Source of the DNA: an uncultured Prevotellaceae bacterium
GTDB taxonomy: Bacteria > Bacteroidota > Bacteroidia > Bacteroidales > Bacteroidaceae
DNA length: 38,870 nucleotides
NCBI GenBank assembly: GCA_900317305.1
Contig: ONGG01000053.1
Span: 1-38,870 of the forward strand
Direction of reading: 5' to 3'
Positions 17,403 through 22,064 of this stretch are shown one piece after another. The notes below the pieces were generated by a model. It was not told the DNA's origin, did not search any database, and worked only from the letters and a program-made list of their open reading frames with translations. Position numbers and translations under genes: made by a program. Positions within the stretch are counted from its first letter, which is position 1; each line of letters begins with the position of its first letter.

Positions 17403-18278
17403 ATGAGTTTGAAAATTGTAGTACTTGCCAAGCAAGTACCCGACACCCGAAACGTAGGCAAGGATGCCATGACCGCAGAAGGCACCGTGAACCGCGCCGC
17501 CTTGCCCGCCATCTTCAACCCCGAAGACTTAAACGCCCTGGAACAAGCCCTCCGCCTGAAGGAGCAGCACCCAGGTTCTACCGTAGGTCTCCTCACGATG
17601 GGTCCTCCACGCGCAGGGGAAATCATCCGTCAGGGTCTCTACCGCGGCGCCGACACCGGTTGGTTGCTCACCGACCGCCTTTTTGCTGGAGCCGACACAC
17701 TGGCCACCTCGTATGCACTGGCCACCGCCATCAAGAAGATTGGTGATGTGGACATCGTGATTGGCGGCCGTCAGGCCATCGATGGCGACACCGCACAGGT
17801 GGGTCCGCAGGTAGCCCAGAAACTGGGTCTGAACCAAGTGACCTACGCCGAGGAAATACTGAAGATTGAAGACGGCAAGGCCACTATCCGCCGCCATATC
17901 GACGGTGGTGTGGAGACCGTTGTTGCCCCGCTCCCCGTAGTGATTACCGTGAACGGAAGCGCTGCCCCCTGCCGTCCTTGCAATGCCAAGTTGGTGATGA
18001 AATACAAATATGCGAGCTGTCCCATGGAGCGCCCCGCCGAGATTGACGAGCGCATGGCCCGTCTGTATGCCGAGCGCGACTACCTGACCCTGAACCAGTG
18101 GTCGGTGGCCGACGTGGATGGCGATGCCTCGCAATGCGGACTTGCCGGCAGCCCCACCAAGGTGAAGGCCGTGAAGAACATCGTGTTCCAAGCCAAGGAG
18201 AGCAAGACCCTCTCGAGCAGCGATGCCGACGTGGAAGGTCTGATACAGGAATTGTTGGAGGAGAAGATAATTGGATAG
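17403..18278 (+). CDS. etfB: Electron transfer flavoprotein, beta subunit
   Basis: A 291-residue EtfB/FixA protein. It begins MSLKIVVLAKQVPDTRNVGK, the family's AMP/FAD-binding N-terminus, and carries ALNALEQALRLKE-like and GVET...PLPVVITVN segments; VDIVIGGRQAIDGDTAQVGPQ is the family hallmark. With EtfA it forms the FAD-containing heterodimer that passes electrons from acyl-CoA dehydrogenase to the quinone pool or another acceptor. The ATG at 17403 is chosen because upstream codons overlap the promoter. EtfA is normally encoded directly downstream; here 878 nt of inserted sequence separate the two genes. The stop TAG (17276-17278 counted +1000, that is 18276-18278) abuts the first base of the inserted element's left repeat. 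Confidence 0.95.
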   Translation: MSLKIVVLAKQVPDTRNVGKDAMTAEGTVNRAALPAIFNPEDLNALEQALRLKEQHPGSTVGLLTMGPPRAGEIIRQGLYRGADTGWLLTDRLFAGADTLATSYALATAIKKIGDVDIVIGGRQAIDGDTAQVGPQVAQKLGLNQVTYAEEILKIEDGKATIRRHIDGGVETVVAPLPVVITVNGSAAPCRPCNAKLVMKYKYASCPMERPAEIDERMARLYAERDYLTLNQWSVADVDGDASQCGLAGSPTKVKAVKNIVFQAKESKTLSSSDADVEGLIQELLEEKIIG

Positions 18279-18317
18279 CCTCACCCCCAACCCCTTTCCA
18301 AGGGAGAGGGGCGTGGT
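18278..18317 (+). repeat. Left terminal repeat of the DUF559 element
   Basis: GCCTCACCCCCAACCCC, then TTTCCAAGGGAGAGGGG, then CGTGG. It is internally palindromic (CCCCTTTCC against GGGAGAGGGG) and matches the reverse complement of the repeat at 19194-19233 at roughly 33 of 40 positions, so the two are terminal inverted repeats. Confidence 0.75.
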
Positions 18318-18432
18318 ATGACGGGCTTACTTGAAGCTGTTGGCACGGACGAACTATTCTGGGTGTGGAATGCACTAATGACTTTTGGTACGGACCACTT
18401 ATCCTCAGTGTGGTATGAAGCGCTTACTTGAA
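18313..18432 (+). repeat. Three degenerate ~50-bp repeats upstream of DUF559
   Basis: Units begin with GTGG(T/A)ATG at 18313, 18365 and 18410. The first and third share CTTACTTGAA 13 nt further on (18326 and 18423), exactly 97 nt apart. The first and second share TTGGYACGGAC (18340 and 18385). The stretch shows no open frame and fills the gap between the left repeat and the DUF559 start. It may be the element's regulatory or recognition region. Confidence 0.6.
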
Positions 18433-18443
18433 ATGATGTGACC

Positions 18444-18830
18444 ATGGTGAAAAAAGGGTATGAGACGGCATCTCATGAAATTTATGACCTGTTGAAGAAA
18501 AATGCTAAAAGCAACAGGCTGGAGATGACGGAAAGCGAAAAAGTGCTTTGGAATGCCCTTCGCGAAAACATTCAAGGTTATCGGTTCAGACGTCAACACG
18601 CCATAGGACAATACATCGCAGACTTCGTTTGCCTTCCAGCACGACTCGTCATTGAAGTGGATGGAGGATACCATCATTCTCCTGAACAACAAGACAAGGA
18701 CAACATACGCACCGACTACCTGGAAGGAAAAAGGTTTCATGTTGTTCGTTTCAGTAACGAGGAAGTAAAAGCCAACATCAAAGGGGTTATCCAAATCATC
18801 AAGGATGAATTGTTCCAACAAGAAGAATAA
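18444..18830 (+). CDS. DUF559 protein (Vsr/PD-(D/E)xK endonuclease-like)
   Basis: A 128-residue protein with the DUF559 pattern along its length: MTESEKVLWNALR, YRFRRQHAIGQYIADFVCL, then LVIEVDGGYHH and RFHVVRFSNEEV. The family belongs to the very-short-patch-repair/PD-(D/E)xK nuclease superfamily; the probable metal-binding acidic residues are the Glu of TESEK, the Asp of ADFVC and the Glu/Asp of IEVDG, all present, so it looks intact. ATG at 18444 is taken over GTG at 18438. It is AT-richer than etfB and etfA and has no role in electron transfer, so it is a passenger in the operon. Its C-terminus (NIKGVIQIIKDELFQQEE) is related to but clearly different from the two remnants downstream. Activity and target are unknown. 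Confidence 0.85.
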   Translation: MVKKGYETASHEIYDLLKKNAKSNRLEMTESEKVLWNALRENIQGYRFRRQHAIGQYIADFVCLPARLVIEVDGGYHHSPEQQDKDNIRTDYLEGKRFHVVRFSNEEVKANIKGVIQIIKDELFQQEE

Positions 18831-18863
18831 ACAAAGAATCAAGAACAATAAACAATCAAAATA

Positions 18864-18894
18864 ATGAATGCACAATCAAATGCGCAGAATGCAG
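18864..18894 (+). repeat. etfA: Duplicated etfA start, copy 1
   Basis: ATGAATGCACAATCAAATGC followed by GCAGAATGCAG, identical to the real etfA start at 19157. The frame from this ATG runs 15 codons and stops at TAA. The AT-rich bases in front (AACAATCAAAATA) also match those before the true start. Confidence 0.8.
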
Positions 18895-18900
18895 GTAAGT

Positions 18901-18972
18901 GCTATCATTAAGGAGATTGTCTGACTCATCCAGGATAAATTGATTCAACAAGGAATAATAAACAAAGAATAA
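18901..18972 (+). pseudogene. Remnant of a DUF559 C-terminus, copy 1
   Basis: A 24-codon stretch reads AIIKEIV-stop-LIQDKLIQQGIINKE-stop. It aligns with the C-terminus of the intact DUF559 protein (NIKGVIQIIKDELFQQEE) but differs in sequence and is longer. An in-frame TGA at 18922-18924 shows decay. It lies between two copies of the etfA start. Confidence 0.65.
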
Positions 18973-18991
18973 ACAACAAACTATCAAAATA

Positions 18992-19028
18992 ATGAATGCA
19001 CAATCAAATACGCAGAATGCAGGAGTAA
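18992..19028 (+). repeat. etfA: Duplicated etfA start, copy 2
   Basis: ATGAATGCACAATCAAATAC and then GCAGAATGCAGGAGTAA, one base different from the true start at 19157. From this ATG the frame runs through the decayed repeat as in EtfA (MNAQSNTQNAGVTTPLSSGR) and stops after 44 codons or fewer, never reaching etfA. Confidence 0.8.
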
Positions 19029-19064
19029 CCACTCCCCTCTCCTCTGGGAGAAAGGCTGGGTTAG
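19029..19064 (+). repeat. Decayed copy of the terminal repeat
   Basis: CACTCCCCTCTCCTCTGGGA, then GAAAGGCTGGGTTAG. The left half is identical to the repeat at 19194-19233, while the right half (GAAAGGCTGGGTTAG for GAGGGGCCGGGGGTGAG) has lost its palindrome. It joins directly to the second DUF559 remnant. Confidence 0.7.
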
Positions 19065-19065
19065 T

Positions 19066-19137
19066 GCTATCATTAAGGAGATTGTCCGAGTCATCCAGGA
19101 TGAATTGATTCAACAAGGAATAATAAACAAAGAATAA
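19066..19137 (+). pseudogene. Remnant of a DUF559 C-terminus, copy 2
   Basis: Twenty-four codons read AIIKEIVRVIQDELIQQGII then NKE-stop. It differs from copy 1 (18901-18972) at a few bases only and keeps its frame open. It is the tail of a DUF559 allele distinct from the intact gene at 18444. The spacer that follows (AACAACAAACTATCAAAATA) leads into the true etfA start. Confidence 0.7.
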
Positions 19138-19156
19138 ACAACAAACTATCAAAATA

Positions 19157-20248
19157 ATGAATGCACAATCAAATGCGCAGAATGCAGGAGTAACCACTCC
19201 CCTCTCCTCTGGGAGAGGGGCCGGGGGTGAGGCTGTGTTTGTATATTGCGAAATTGAAGGCTGCCTGGTGCAGGAAGTGTCCCAGGAGTTGCTGACCAAG
19301 GGCCGCAAACTGGCCAACGAGCTTGGTGTTGAATTGCATGCCGTGGTCATTGGCACCGGCATCACTGGCAAGGTGGAAGACCAGATTCTGCCCTATGGTG
19401 TAGACAAGCTCTTCGTTTTCGACGGCGAGGGACTCTTCCCCTACACTTCGGCTCCCCATACCGACATCATGGTGAACCTCTTCAAGGAGGAGAAGCCACA
19501 GATCTGTCTGATGGGCGCCACTGTTATCGGACGCGACCTCGGTCCACGCGTGTCGTCATCGCTCACCAGCGGTCTGACCGCCGACTGCACCGAACTGGAG
19601 ATTGGCGACTATGAGGACAAGAAGAATGAGAAGGTGTTCAAGAACCTGCTCTACCAGATCCGTCCCGCCTTCGGTGGCAACATCGTGGCCACCATCGTCA
19701 ACCCCGAGCACCGTCCGCAGATGGCCACCGTGCGCTCGGGCGTGATGCAGAAAGCCATTTACGAGGGCGAGTGCAAGAAAGAGGTGGTATATCCTGAGAT
19801 CTCGAAATACGTGTCGGCAGAGGCCTTCGTGGTGAAGGTGCTCGACCACCATGTGGAAGCTGCCAAGCACAACCTGAAAGGTGCCCAGATCGTGGTGGCC
19901 GGAGGTTATGGCATGGGTTCGAAAGAAGGATTCGACCTGCTGTTTGACTTGGCCAAGGTGCTCCACGCCGAGGTAGGTGCCTCGCGTGCCGCTGTGGACG
20001 CCGGTTTCTGCGACCACGACCGTCAGATTGGTCAGACGGGTGTCACCGTGCATCCTAAAGTGTACATCGCCTGCGGCATCTCCGGACAGATTCAGCACAT
20101 CGCCGGTATGCAGGACTCTGGTATCATCATCTCGGTGAACAGCGACCCCGATGCCCCCATCAACAAGATTGCCGACTACGTGATTGTCGGAACGGTGGAG
20201 GAAGTCGTGCCGAAGTTGATTAAATACTACAAGCAGAACTCGAAATAA
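19157..20248 (+). CDS. etfA: Electron transfer flavoprotein, alpha subunit, with repeat-encoded N-terminus
   Basis: A 363-residue EtfA/FixB protein. The N-domain starts at about residue 27 (VFVYCEIEGCLVQEVSQELL), and the C-terminal FAD-binding domain holds VVAGGYGMGSKEGFDLL, GASRAAVDAGF, QIGQTGVTVHPKVYIACGISG, and SVNSDPDAPI, all family hallmarks. The gene continues the etfB function. The first 26 residues are unusual: MNAQSNAQNAGV, then TTPLSSGRGAGGEA, which is the in-frame translation of the palindromic terminal repeat at 19194-19233. Ordinary EtfA proteins begin almost directly with the VFVYCE strand. The extra residues should lie at the surface and are probably tolerated. Its stop TAA abuts the ATG of the small membrane protein gene. 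Confidence 0.93.
   Translation: MNAQSNAQNAGVTTPLSSGRGAGGEAVFVYCEIEGCLVQEVSQELLTKGRKLANELGVELHAVVIGTGITGKVEDQILPYGVDKLFVFDGEGLFPYTSAPHTDIMVNLFKEEKPQICLMGATVIGRDLGPRVSSSLTSGLTADCTELEIGDYEDKKNEKVFKNLLYQIRPAFGGNIVATIVNPEHRPQMATVRSGVMQKAIYEGECKKEVVYPEISKYVSAEAFVVKVLDHHVEAAKHNLKGAQIVVAGGYGMGSKEGFDLLFDLAKVLHAEVGASRAAVDAGFCDHDRQIGQTGVTVHPKVYIACGISGQIQHIAGMQDSGIIISVNSDPDAPINKIADYVIVGTVEEVVPKLIKYYKQNSK
19194..19233 (-). repeat. Right terminal repeat of the DUF559 element, inside etfA
   Basis: On the minus strand it reads GCCTCACCCCCGGCCCC, then TCTCCCAGAGGAGAGGGG, then AGTGG, matching the left repeat at 18278. It is translated in the plus frame as TTPLSSGRGAGGEA of EtfA. The minus-strand translation, SLTPGPSPRGEG, is a peptide I remember as recurring in spurious ORFs of many unrelated genomes, which suggests a widespread repeat family. 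Confidence 0.75.
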
Positions 20249-20427: not shown

Positions 20428-22064
20428 ATGGCAAACTATTATAGTGACCACCCAGAGATTGCGTTCCACCTGGACCATCCCCTGATGAAGCGCATCGTTG
20501 ACCTGAAAGAGCGCGGCTATGCCGACGCAGCACAATATCCCGATGCCCCCATCGACTATGAGGACGCCATCGAGAACTACAAGCGCATCCTCGACATCAC
20601 CGGCGACGTGGCCGCCAATATCCTGGAGCCCAACTCGGAGAGCGTGGACCCCGCAAGGCCGGACTTCACGGCGTGTCGATGCCCCGCCGCTACGGCGGTC
20701 TGAACCTGCCCAACGTGACTTTCTCGATGCTGAGCGAGGTGATTTCGGCCGCCGACGCCGGTTTCCAGAACATCTGGAGTCTGCAGAGCTGTATCGACAC
20801 CCTCTATGAGTTTGGCAGCGAGGAGCAGCGCCAGAAATACATCCCCCGCGTATGCGCCGGCGAGTCGATGTCGATGGACCTCACCGAGCCCGATGCCGGT
20901 AGCGACCTGCAGCGCGTGATGCTGAAGGCCACCTTCGATGAGAAAGAGAACTGCTGGCGCCTGAACGGCGTGAAGCGTTTCATCACCAATGGTGACTCCG
21001 ACATCCACTTAGTGCTCGCCCGCTCGGAGGAAGGTACCCGCGACGGCCGCGGCCTGTCGATGTTCATCTACGACAAGCGCAACGGTGGTGTGGACGTGCG
21101 CCATATCGAGCACAAACTCGGCATCCACGGTTCGCCCACCTGCGAGCTCACCTACAAGAACGCCAAGGCTGAACTCTGCGGCAGCACCCGTCTGGGACTC
21201 ATCAAGTATGTGATGGCCCTGATGAACGGCGCCCGCCTGGGCATCGCCGCACAGAGTGTGGGTGTGGAGCAGGAAGCCTACAACGAAGGACTGAAATATG
21301 CCAAGGAGCGCCAACAGTTCGGTCAGAAGATCATCGAGTTCCCCGCCGTCTTCGACATGCTCTCACGCATGAAGGCCAAGCTCGACGCCGGTCGCTCGCT
21401 GCTCTACCAGACCGCCCGCTACGTGGACATCTACAAGGCCCTTGAGGACATCCAGCGCGACACCAAACTCACTGCCGAGGAGCGTCAGGAACTGAAGAAG
21501 TATACCCGTCTGGCCGACGCCTTCACACCGCTGGCCAAGGGTATGAACTCGGAATATGCCAACCAGAACGCCTACGATGCCATCAGCATCCATGGTGGTT
21601 CGGGCTTCATCATGGAATACAAGAGCCAGCGTCTCTACCGCGACGCCCGCATCTTCTCCATCTATGAAGGCACCACACAACTCCAGGTAGTGGCAGCCCT
21701 GCGCTACATCATCAACGGCACTTACCTTTCGATTATCAAAGAGATGCTCGAGGCAGAGGTGGCCGACGACCTGAAGGCACTGAAGACCCGCGTGGAGGCC
21801 ATGGTGGCCAAATACGAGGAAGTGCTGGGCGAGGTGAAGGCAGAGAACGACCAGGAGAAGATTGACTTCGTGGCCCGCCGCCTGTATGAGATGACCGCCG
21901 ACATCATCATGTCGCTGCTCATCCTCGACGATGCCACCCGTGCCCCCGAACTCTTCGCCAAGAGCGCCAATGTCTACGTAAGGCATGCCGAGGCCGAATG
22001 CTCAGGCCACTACGACTTCATCAAGCAACTGAAGAAAGAAGACATCGAATACTATCGTGCATAA
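20428..22064 (+). pseudogene. Acyl-CoA dehydrogenase, interrupted by a deletion/frameshift
   Basis: Acyl-CoA dehydrogenases introduce the alpha-beta double bond in acyl-CoA and pass electrons to ETF. From ATG 20428 the frame reads a normal N-terminus (MANYYSDHPEIAFHLDHPLM, TGDVAANILEPNSESVD) up to about 20649, then leaves the family. From 20655 a second frame continues with KAGLHGVSMPRRYGGLNLPN and remains family-like to the stop at 22064: MSMDLTEPDAGSDLQ (FAD/substrate motif), RFITNGD, GIHGSPTC, GARLGIAAQSVG, AFTPLAKGMNSEYANQNAYD, IHGGSGFIMEYKSQRLYRDARI with IYEGTTQLQ. Members of this ~570-residue class have roughly two dozen residues between SVD and KAGLHGV; here these are missing and the frame is shifted. 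The C-terminal part has its own ATG (20673) but would lack the first helices. Pseudogene or assembly artefact. Confidence 0.85.

What the first reader, a model, noticed from the sequence alone, without database searches (positions are those of the whole stretch)
18278..19233. DUF559 element bounded by palindromic terminal inverted repeats splits etfB from etfA
A passenger gene of the Vsr/PD-(D/E)xK-like DUF559 family stands between two ~40-bp repeats in inverted orientation. The left repeat starts on the last base of the etfB stop codon and the right one ends inside the etfA coding region. Each repeat is also an internal palindrome. The unit has the form of a mobile element (terminal inverted repeats, one nuclease-like gene, AT-rich cargo, insertion in an otherwise tight operon) yet has no recognisable transposase. 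If the DUF559 protein is itself the mobility enzyme, this would be an unnamed class of element using a Vsr-like nuclease.
Basis: partly seen in the sequence, partly recalled or inferred. Interest (0 to 1): 0.85.

Follow-up and report, generated by a model that had tools for sequence, protein, structure and literature searches.

The report
Palindrome-bounded selfish element with Vsr-like nuclease
A short piece of DNA, made of one small DNA-cutting-enzyme gene between two mirror-image hairpin repeats, appears to be a selfish mobile element that recurs at the same sites in different bacteria and can sit in frame inside other genes.

Summary
Window 18277-19234 holds a DUF559 gene (PF04480) between two ~40-nt palindromic repeats in inverted orientation, between etfB and etfA; in the closest relatives these genes abut. 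The arrangement is general: inverted repeat pairs flank 55 of 70 and 67 of 80 Bacteroidales DUF559 loci (control ORFs 5 of 145) and 33 of 60 in two proteobacterial classes (mismatched flanks 24 of 400). Arm sequence follows the DUF559 phylogeny, and arm geometry changes with the DUF559 clade. Gene-free doublets of uniform size occur, as REPINs do. At shared sites, 9 of 191 alignable species pairs have an element more alike than any flanking stretch; in one, in frame inside a helicase gene, four-fold sites agree 30 of 30 inside and 113 of 230 outside. The protein is related to the homing endonuclease I-Bth0305I. Best reading: a palindrome-ended, homing-like element with REPIN-like derivatives. 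That DUF559 is the mobility enzyme is inferred, not shown. Against it: 169 of the 191 pairs have an element less alike than the median flank, and four palindrome-bearing genomes have no DUF559 hit.

The parts
18277..18317 (+). left palindromic arm (tail CCTCACCCCC, then hairpin), starting on the etfB stop codon
18313..18432 (+). 23-nt direct repeat (18313-18335 and 18410-18432); most of this stretch is absent from the relative L134 (DUF559 gene 95% alike), so probably a local duplication
18438..18830 (+). DUF559 nuclease gene, 130 aa, single domain (PF04480; relatives Vsr and I-Bth0305I), invariant D62, E73, D75, H79, D88 kept
18825..19223 (+). tandem-duplicated tail: 71-nt unit x3 and 165-nt unit x2, repeating the DUF559 C-terminus, the etfA start region and (in the longer unit) the palindrome
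   Evidence: the second 165-nt unit is missing in L134 (alignment)
19028..19058 (-). damaged extra copy of the right palindrome
19193..19234 (-). right palindromic arm, in frame in the etfA N-terminal extension
17403..18278 (+). etfB, upstream neighbour
19157..20248 (+). etfA, whose start codon and first 26 residues now come from the element

Best explanation
The feature is one copy of a widespread minimal selfish element: a single Vsr/EDxHD-type PD-(D/E)XK nuclease (DUF559) between two inverted hairpin repeats. SHOWN by comparison: the two arms and the gene form a coupled unit; the unit is absent from close relatives; it recurs at the same sites in different species; some copies at the same site are far more alike than the genes around them, with the change near the arms; gene-free doublets of uniform size exist; insertions can be in frame inside genes. 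INFERRED: the DUF559 protein recognises the palindromes and/or the site and nicks or cuts DNA, and repair copies the element (or a doublet) into the empty allele (homing-like), more rarely into a new site. In the cases read (etfA, helicase) the arms are translated without a stop, which would explain why insertion at operon junctions and in loops is tolerated. In the window the element supplies the etfA start codon, and its tail was then tandemly duplicated.
For: Unit: inverted repeat pair in 55 of 70 loci (window included) and 67 of 80, against 5 of 145 control ORFs (4 distinct) and 6 of 427 random places; Proteobacteria 33 of 60 against 24 of 400 mismatched flanks; of 12 plasmid or phage loci, 9 have an inverted hit at E <= 1e-3 (6 at <= 1e-4), 7 of the 9 by eye C/G-rich palindromes, from Cyanobacteria, Deinococcota and Alphaproteobacteria. 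Coupling: arm similarity follows DUF559 similarity between different sites (rho 0.34, 0 of 300 permutations); geometry follows the clade, tail-out 88 and tail-in 0 in the main clade, 0 and 6 in the other. Empty sites. Same-site excess of likeness; helicase pair L185/L208, four-fold sites 30/30 in the element, 113/230 outside. Doublets: 26 '+-' neighbours (2 of them are DUF559 elements) against 9 in the other three orientations; spacings 93 x4 in G032, 101-104 x7 in G016. More palindromes in DUF559-bearing genomes (mean 15.0 against 2.4, p 4e-4). Homology to I-Bth0305I (3r3p, E 6.2e-6).
Against: Of 191 alignable same-site pairs, 169 have an element less alike than the median flank and 44 less alike than every flank window, so vertical persistence, fast divergence or repeated independent insertion is commoner than recent homing; eight further close pairs tested at four-fold sites show no clear excess, the window's own pairs among them. 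G022, G027, G032 and G066 have 11-20 palindromes and no DUF559 match. The own genome has one DUF559 and four further exact palindromes that look single. Own left and right arms also match each other better than arms of other sites (81 of 116 best, 111 of 116 in the top 5%), but the arms were found by that very match, so this is biased. Target-site duplications and excision products were not sought systematically; none is evident at the etf junction, where the right border varies by a few nucleotides between lineages. The hairpins are not stronger than shuffles. DUF559 loci without an inverted pair: 15 of 70, 13 of 80, 27 of 60. Some of the pairs counted in Proteobacteria are not C/G-rich palindromes. 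No biochemistry.
Confidence: 0.62

Rival explanations
1. The palindromes are a REP-like repeat family moved by another enzyme, and DUF559 (a repair or defence nuclease) is a passenger caught between two repeats.
For: Palindromes and doublets occur in four genomes without a DUF559 match; a DUF559 protein of Caulobacter (VsrA) is tied to DNA damage and proposed as a repair enzyme (PMC12907096, section 12 read); 15 of 70 DUF559 loci lack an inverted pair.
Against: Arm sequence and arm geometry follow the DUF559 phylogeny; pairs flank it in several phyla; Y1/HUH transposases (RAYT/IS200) are no commoner in palindrome-rich genomes (11 of 17) than in palindrome-free ones (8 of 12) of the 31 checked. 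Other possible movers were not searched for.
Confidence: 0.2
2. Ordinary horizontal transfer and homologous recombination: the element is an old vertically inherited insertion, and the very similar same-site pairs are short recombination tracts.
For: 169 of 191 same-site pairs have an element less alike than the median flank; slightly raised identity beside some elements, e.g. L191/L193 and L168/L172; two of the nine excess pairs are marginal (L143/L144, L144/L145).
Against: L185/L208: 97% in the element against a flank median of 76%, with the change near the arms, flanks that diverged being poor substrates for a tract so short; four-fold sites 30/30 against 113/230; all eight of the nine pairs tested at four-fold sites go the same way, one-sided binomial p 1.6e-7 to 0.049 in the six for which it was computed, uncorrected.
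Confidence: 0.13
3. A classical small transposon with terminal inverted repeats, moved by DUF559 as transposase, without homing.
For: Terminal inverted repeats; 146 elements at 65 distinct sites; two different positions in the same hpa operon in two Deinococcus plasmids; two copies without shared flanks in one genome, L018/L046 88% and L044/L044b 89%.
Against: No target-site duplication evident at the etf junction; site labels cluster on the DUF559 tree (19 changes, 62 when shuffled), i.e. lineages keep their sites; only these two same-genome pairs without flank likeness were seen above 78% identity.
Confidence: 0.12
4. The palindromes are only transcription terminators or mRNA hairpins of the etf operon.
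For: They sit at gene borders and fold as hairpins.
Against: 40 of 50 junctions lack them by eye; they also lie in frame inside genes; no Rfam match; fold energies not unusual.
Confidence: 0.03

Closest known systems
REP/REPIN repeats with RAYT (TnpA-REP)
   Same: Short palindromes in inverted pairs around a nuclease gene; gene-free doublets of uniform size; location at gene ends, sometimes inside genes (PMC3733652, abstract and passages; REPIN literature otherwise recalled or seen as listings).
   Different: Nuclease is PD-(D/E)XK/Vsr-like, not HUH tyrosine; repeat tail in the window is CCTCACCCCC, not the GTAG tag; elements recur at the same site across species.
EDxHD homing endonucleases (I-Bth0305I, 3r3p)
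   Same: Detectable sequence relation to DUF559; likeness at the cognate site beyond that of the flanks. A DUF559 gene is already called EDxHD in PMC9403480 (passage).
   Different: Those in the review passages read (PMC3943268) are largely phage enzymes with extra DNA-binding regions; here a 130-aa single domain, no intron or intein, palindromic ends and gene-free doublets.
Rickettsia palindromic elements (RPE)
   Same: Palindromic elements inserted in frame in protein genes (recalled; search listing only).
   Different: No associated nuclease gene known to me (recalled); sequence not compared here.
Vsr mismatch endonuclease / Caulobacter VsrA
   Same: Same nuclease superfamily (NCBIfam vsr 7.6e-5, below its cut-off); VsrA carries DUF559 (PMC12907096).
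   Different: Immediate neighbours here are etfB and etfA, not a cytosine methyltransferase; linked to palindromes and mobility.
CGTC-tagged REPs
   Same: Palindromic repeats said to lack a dedicated transposase (PMC3733652 abstract).
   Different: Different tag; whether any are DUF559-linked was not tested.

Membership tests
REP/REPIN-RAYT | Y1 HUH transposase gene between the repeats | tested here: not met
   The only gene-like ORF between the arms is DUF559; no Y1_Tnp match at E <= 0.001 in the own genome, 93% complete
REP/REPIN-RAYT | inverted palindromic repeats around the gene | tested here: met
REP/REPIN-RAYT | GTAG tag at the foot of the hairpin | tested here: inconclusive
   Absent from the window's arms as read; some other elements read GGGGAGTAG after the hairpin; not tested systematically
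REP/REPIN-RAYT | dispersed gene-free doublets of uniform size | tested here: met
   In relatives G016 and G032; not seen in the own genome, where the four other exact copies look single
EDxHD homing endonuclease element | nuclease domain related to I-Bth0305I | tested here: met
   3r3p E 6.2e-6 with a DUF559 profile
EDxHD homing endonuclease element | encoded in an intron or intein | tested here: not met
   Free-standing ORF; no Rfam match in 17900-19600; intein domains not searched for
EDxHD homing endonuclease element | super-Mendelian spread into the cognate empty site | tested here: inconclusive
   Indirect support from 9 of 191 same-site pairs and from four-fold sites; no cross or cleavage assay possible
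DDE transposon / insertion sequence | transposase ORF between the ends | tested here: not met
DDE transposon / insertion sequence | target-site duplication | tested here: inconclusive
   None evident at the etf junction against relatives, which are other species
Vsr very-short-patch repair | gene coupled to a cytosine methyltransferase | tested here: not met
   Immediate neighbours are etfB and etfA; the rest of window and genome was not searched for a methyltransferase
DUF559 (PF04480) | profile match over the curated cut-off | tested here: met
   114.7 bits, cut-off 20.6

The most novel reading that the evidence does not exclude
DUF559 proteins are the dedicated mobility enzymes of a very widespread palindromic repeat type of bacteria (CCTCACCCC-NN-CCCTCTCC...GGAGAGGG and its variants). 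Together they form an unnamed class of element that combines homing into fixed sites, REPIN-like non-autonomous doublets and in-frame residence in host genes, and that arose independently of RAYT.
Probability: 0.5. Interest if true: 0.92.

Novelty: categorically new. Interest (0 to 1): 0.84.

Why it matters
GC-rich palindromes of this form occur in many bacterial genomes without a mover known to me, and DUF559 is a large family still listed as of unknown function. Linking the two would give the repeats an enzyme and the family a function. It would show a second, independent origin of the REPIN-like way of life with a nuclease of the restriction-enzyme fold, and a homing-type element that needs no intron or intein because its ends can be translated. 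It makes clear predictions that can be tested with a 130-aa protein and about 500-950 bp of DNA.

Tried and rejected
The first palindrome pattern had a wrong spacing and found nothing useful; replaced by the tail pattern. Rfam (none) and PADLOC (only DpdF 7.8e-4) gave no other identity, so a known RNA or a listed defence system is not supported. E. coli ycjD was tried as a clean presence/absence case: 3,362 of 5,426 genomes hold a place covering at least 80% of the ycjD region, but in the three strains without it that I opened the fabI side carries an efflux adaptor and a TetR gene instead (eefRABCD in PMC12817139, passages), so it is a swap, not an empty site; by eye ycjD has such palindromes downstream only, and the inverted-pair test on it was negative (L217). 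RAYT/Y1 as mover: no association in the 31 genomes checked (I chose these partly by their palindrome counts). Terminator reading rejected. Footprint idea (GAGGCT before VFVYC in the G009 clade as a scar) left open: it may equally be the target. The tail that carries the new etfA start codon looks selected after insertion, but I could not date it. Structure prediction and fold search were not run, as PDB sequence hits already placed the fold. Literature: searches on DUF559, LTPGPSP, ycjD, Vsr with palindromic or terminal-repeat words, COG2852/PF04480, EDxHD/homing endonuclease/Vsr, REPIN/RAYT/Vsr/DUF559, RPE words, homing endonuclease/REPIN/MITE showed no title or abstract start that links DUF559 to palindromes; several listings were capped (e.g. 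25 of 94, 15 of 19). Of the 14 DUF559 papers two were opened, for passages and one section; four other papers were opened for an outline or passages. The I-Bth0305I paper and the 'fractured genes' paper (recalled) are not held, so prior description there cannot be excluded. Output was cut; counts were redone from the saved table.
Full report
What is in the window. Between etfB (17403-18278) and etfA (19157-20248) stands a 130-aa DUF559 gene (18438-18830 +, PF04480 2.4e-33). It lies between two palindromic arms in inverted orientation at 18277-18317 and 19193-19234 (86% alike; repeat core found twice where 0.01 is expected). The left arm begins on the etfB stop. The right arm is read in frame as part of an N-terminal extension of EtfA. 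The copy is worn: compared with the relative L134 (DUF559 gene 95% alike) it carries a local duplication left of the gene and a second 165-nt unit of the tail, with a damaged third palindrome.

Empty sites. I read 50 etfB-etfA junctions of the genus: the 30 best EtfA hits (window included) and 20 that I picked from the rest of the list, about half of them because their EtfA start or open frame looked odd, so not a random sample. By eye, forty have neither GC-rich palindromes of this kind nor DUF559 (some have AT-rich repeats). Four have the DUF559 element (window; L090; L116; L084, of which only the gene's end, tail and right arm lie on the contig). Four have an inverted palindrome doublet without the gene (L089, L099, and two of other sequence, L117 and L128). 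Two could not be read (L119, L122). In the closest relatives (L085-L088) the etfB stop and the etfA start touch, and EtfA starts MEAVFVY; most others start MNNVFVYC or a near variant. In the four filled sites and in L089 and L099 the spacer before the right arm supplies a start codon, in frame through the palindrome.

The association is general. In Bacteroidales, an inverted repeat pair (E <= 1e-4 within 500 nt) flanks 55 of 70 DUF559 loci (window included; 2 more dropped for short flanks). The same test on 145 other ORFs of the same contigs gives 5 (4 distinct, one of them a palindrome pair), and on 427 random places 6. A scan of named genomes, of which the best 80 of 252 loci are returned, gave 67 of 80; six of these are the same contigs as in the first set. 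In two proteobacterial classes it is 16 of 28 (3 dropped for short flanks; 31 of the 32 places found) and 17 of 32 (of the 43 places found), against 24 of 400 mismatched flanks. Twelve DUF559 loci from plasmid and phage records (of 44 records found) were chosen for diverse hosts before their flanks were seen. At E <= 1e-3 nine have an inverted hit (six at <= 1e-4). Seven of the nine are by eye C/G-rich palindromes: two Deinococcus, three cyanobacterial (two of these only at 2.6e-4 and 7e-4), Sphingomonas and Sinorhizobium meliloti. The Neisseria locus has mainly direct repeats and the phage hit a non-palindromic one. Sinorhizobium K101, Azospirillum and Photobacterium fail the test and have palindromes on one side by eye.

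Arms and gene evolve together. Arm similarity follows DUF559 similarity between elements at different sites (rho 0.34, 0 of 300 permutations, 6,293 pairs). Within an element the two arms match each other better than any arm from another site in 81 of 116 cases and in the top 5% in 111 of 116, but the arms were found by that match, so this number is biased upward. The side of the hairpin on which the C-rich tail lies also follows the gene tree: 88 tail-out and 0 tail-in in the main clade (16 unclear or without a clear hairpin), 0 and 6 in the 23-row group on the other side of the midpoint root (6 unclear), 5 and 12 in the proteobacterial loci (16 unclear).

Gene-free relatives. With one palindrome pattern, 42 of 72 genomes of the genus have copies. 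The reversed control pattern gives 0-2 per genome except in G003 (31) and G026 (48). The 41 genomes with a clear DUF559 match (E below 1e-15) have more (30 with at least one, mean 15.0) than the 31 with none or only a weak one (12, mean 2.4; p 4e-4). Among neighbours within 700 nt in the listed places of six genomes (lists capped per genome), 26 are in the inverted outward-tail orientation, two of them DUF559 elements, and 9 in the other three orientations. Spacings cluster at 93 nt in one genome and 101-104 nt in another; two doublets in G032 share nearly the same spacer. These are REPIN-like. G032, G022, G027 and G066 have 11-20 such repeats but no DUF559 match, which counts against a strict need for a resident gene. 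HUH Y1 transposases do not track the palindromes (11 of 17 rich genomes, 8 of 12 palindrome-free ones).

Same sites again and again. After removal of six duplicate contigs, 146 elements fall at 65 sites defined by likeness of both flanks. The largest group, 23, splits into etfB|etfA (12) and etfA|acyl-CoA dehydrogenase (11). Labels of sites cluster on the DUF559 tree (19 changes, 62 when shuffled, least possible 12), yet well-supported branches force at least three gains or losses of the label at each of the two etf sites. The sample leans towards relatives of the window's protein.

In-frame residence and horizontal return. In three species (L185, L208, L174) the complete element lies in frame inside one loop of a helicase (after GPPGTGKT). 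The 29 other helicase loci that I read, the best hits of 121 genomes with one, have a short variable loop without DUF559. A fourth genome, L080, shares the flanks but was not read there. L185 and L208 differ by a quarter of the bases in the flanking helicase gene, but their elements are 97% identical, with the change of identity near the arms. Four-fold sites agree 30 of 30 inside and 113 of 230 outside. Of 316 same-site pairs, 191 remain after 32 with gapped elements and 93 with poorly alignable flanks are set aside. In 9 the element is more alike than every flank window of equal length within 3.5 kb (two of these marginally, L143/L144 and L144/L145). But 169 are below the flank median and 44 below every window, so most copies look old, fast-evolving or independently inserted. 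Eight of the nine were tested at four-fold sites of the DUF559 gene, and all exceed their flanking genes; in the six for which a one-sided binomial p was computed it runs from 1.6e-7 to 0.049, uncorrected. Eight other close pairs, three with the window's element among them, show no clear excess.

Enzyme. A DUF559 profile finds a DUF559 structure (3hrl, 1.3e-32) and then the mobile-intron protein 3r3p (6.2e-6), which I know as I-Bth0305I (recalled). NCBIfam's Vsr model matches below its cut-off (7.6e-5). Residues D62, E73, D75, H79 and D88 are invariant among 19 sequences. PMC9403480 (passage) already places a DUF559 gene in the EDxHD homing family. PMC12907096 (section 12) shows that a DUF559 protein of Caulobacter is responsible for an SOS response in cells that lack a methylase. 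PMC1189080 (passages) lists YcjD as PD-(D/E)XK, near Vsr.

Verdict. What is shown is a coupled, palindrome-ended unit with empty sites, gene-free derivatives, recurrence at fixed sites and, in some pairs, horizontal return. What is inferred is that its nuclease drives this by cutting at palindromes or empty sites, with repair copying the element. It works like a cross of REPIN/RAYT and homing endonuclease systems and fails a defining feature of each (HUH enzyme; intron or intein), so I file it under neither. In the library searched no listing links DUF559 to palindromes (several capped), but the founding EDxHD papers were not available.

Noticed in passing
window 20428-20703 and 20673-22064: The acyl-CoA dehydrogenase downstream of etfA is split in two overlapping frames: a frameshift, real or from sequencing.
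   Followed up: no
L085-L088, junction etfB-etfA: The G009 clade starts EtfA with ATGGAGGCN before the conserved VFVY; GAGGC(T) equals the element's outer end, so it may be an excision scar or the target.
   Followed up: partly
L133 4160-4440 and L217 (E. coli ycjD): Downstream of E. coli ycjD a stretch like the C-terminus of the gene and palindromes are repeated, as in the window; the 791-nt query has a median of four places per matching E. coli genome, so part of it is a dispersed repeat.
   Followed up: partly
L223 and L226: Two Deinococcus plasmids carry a palindrome-flanked DUF559 gene at two different positions of the same hpa operon; the junction filled in one is a 4-nt gene overlap in the other.
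   Followed up: partly
L269 (G032:C34): Palindrome doublets with an almost identical spacer lie in apparently open coding frames, one just before a sequence that reads by eye like the start of carbamoyl-phosphate synthase.
   Followed up: no
G003 and G026: Very many palindromes (92 and 109) and also many hits of the reversed control pattern (31 and 48): a second C-rich repeat family may be present.
   Followed up: no
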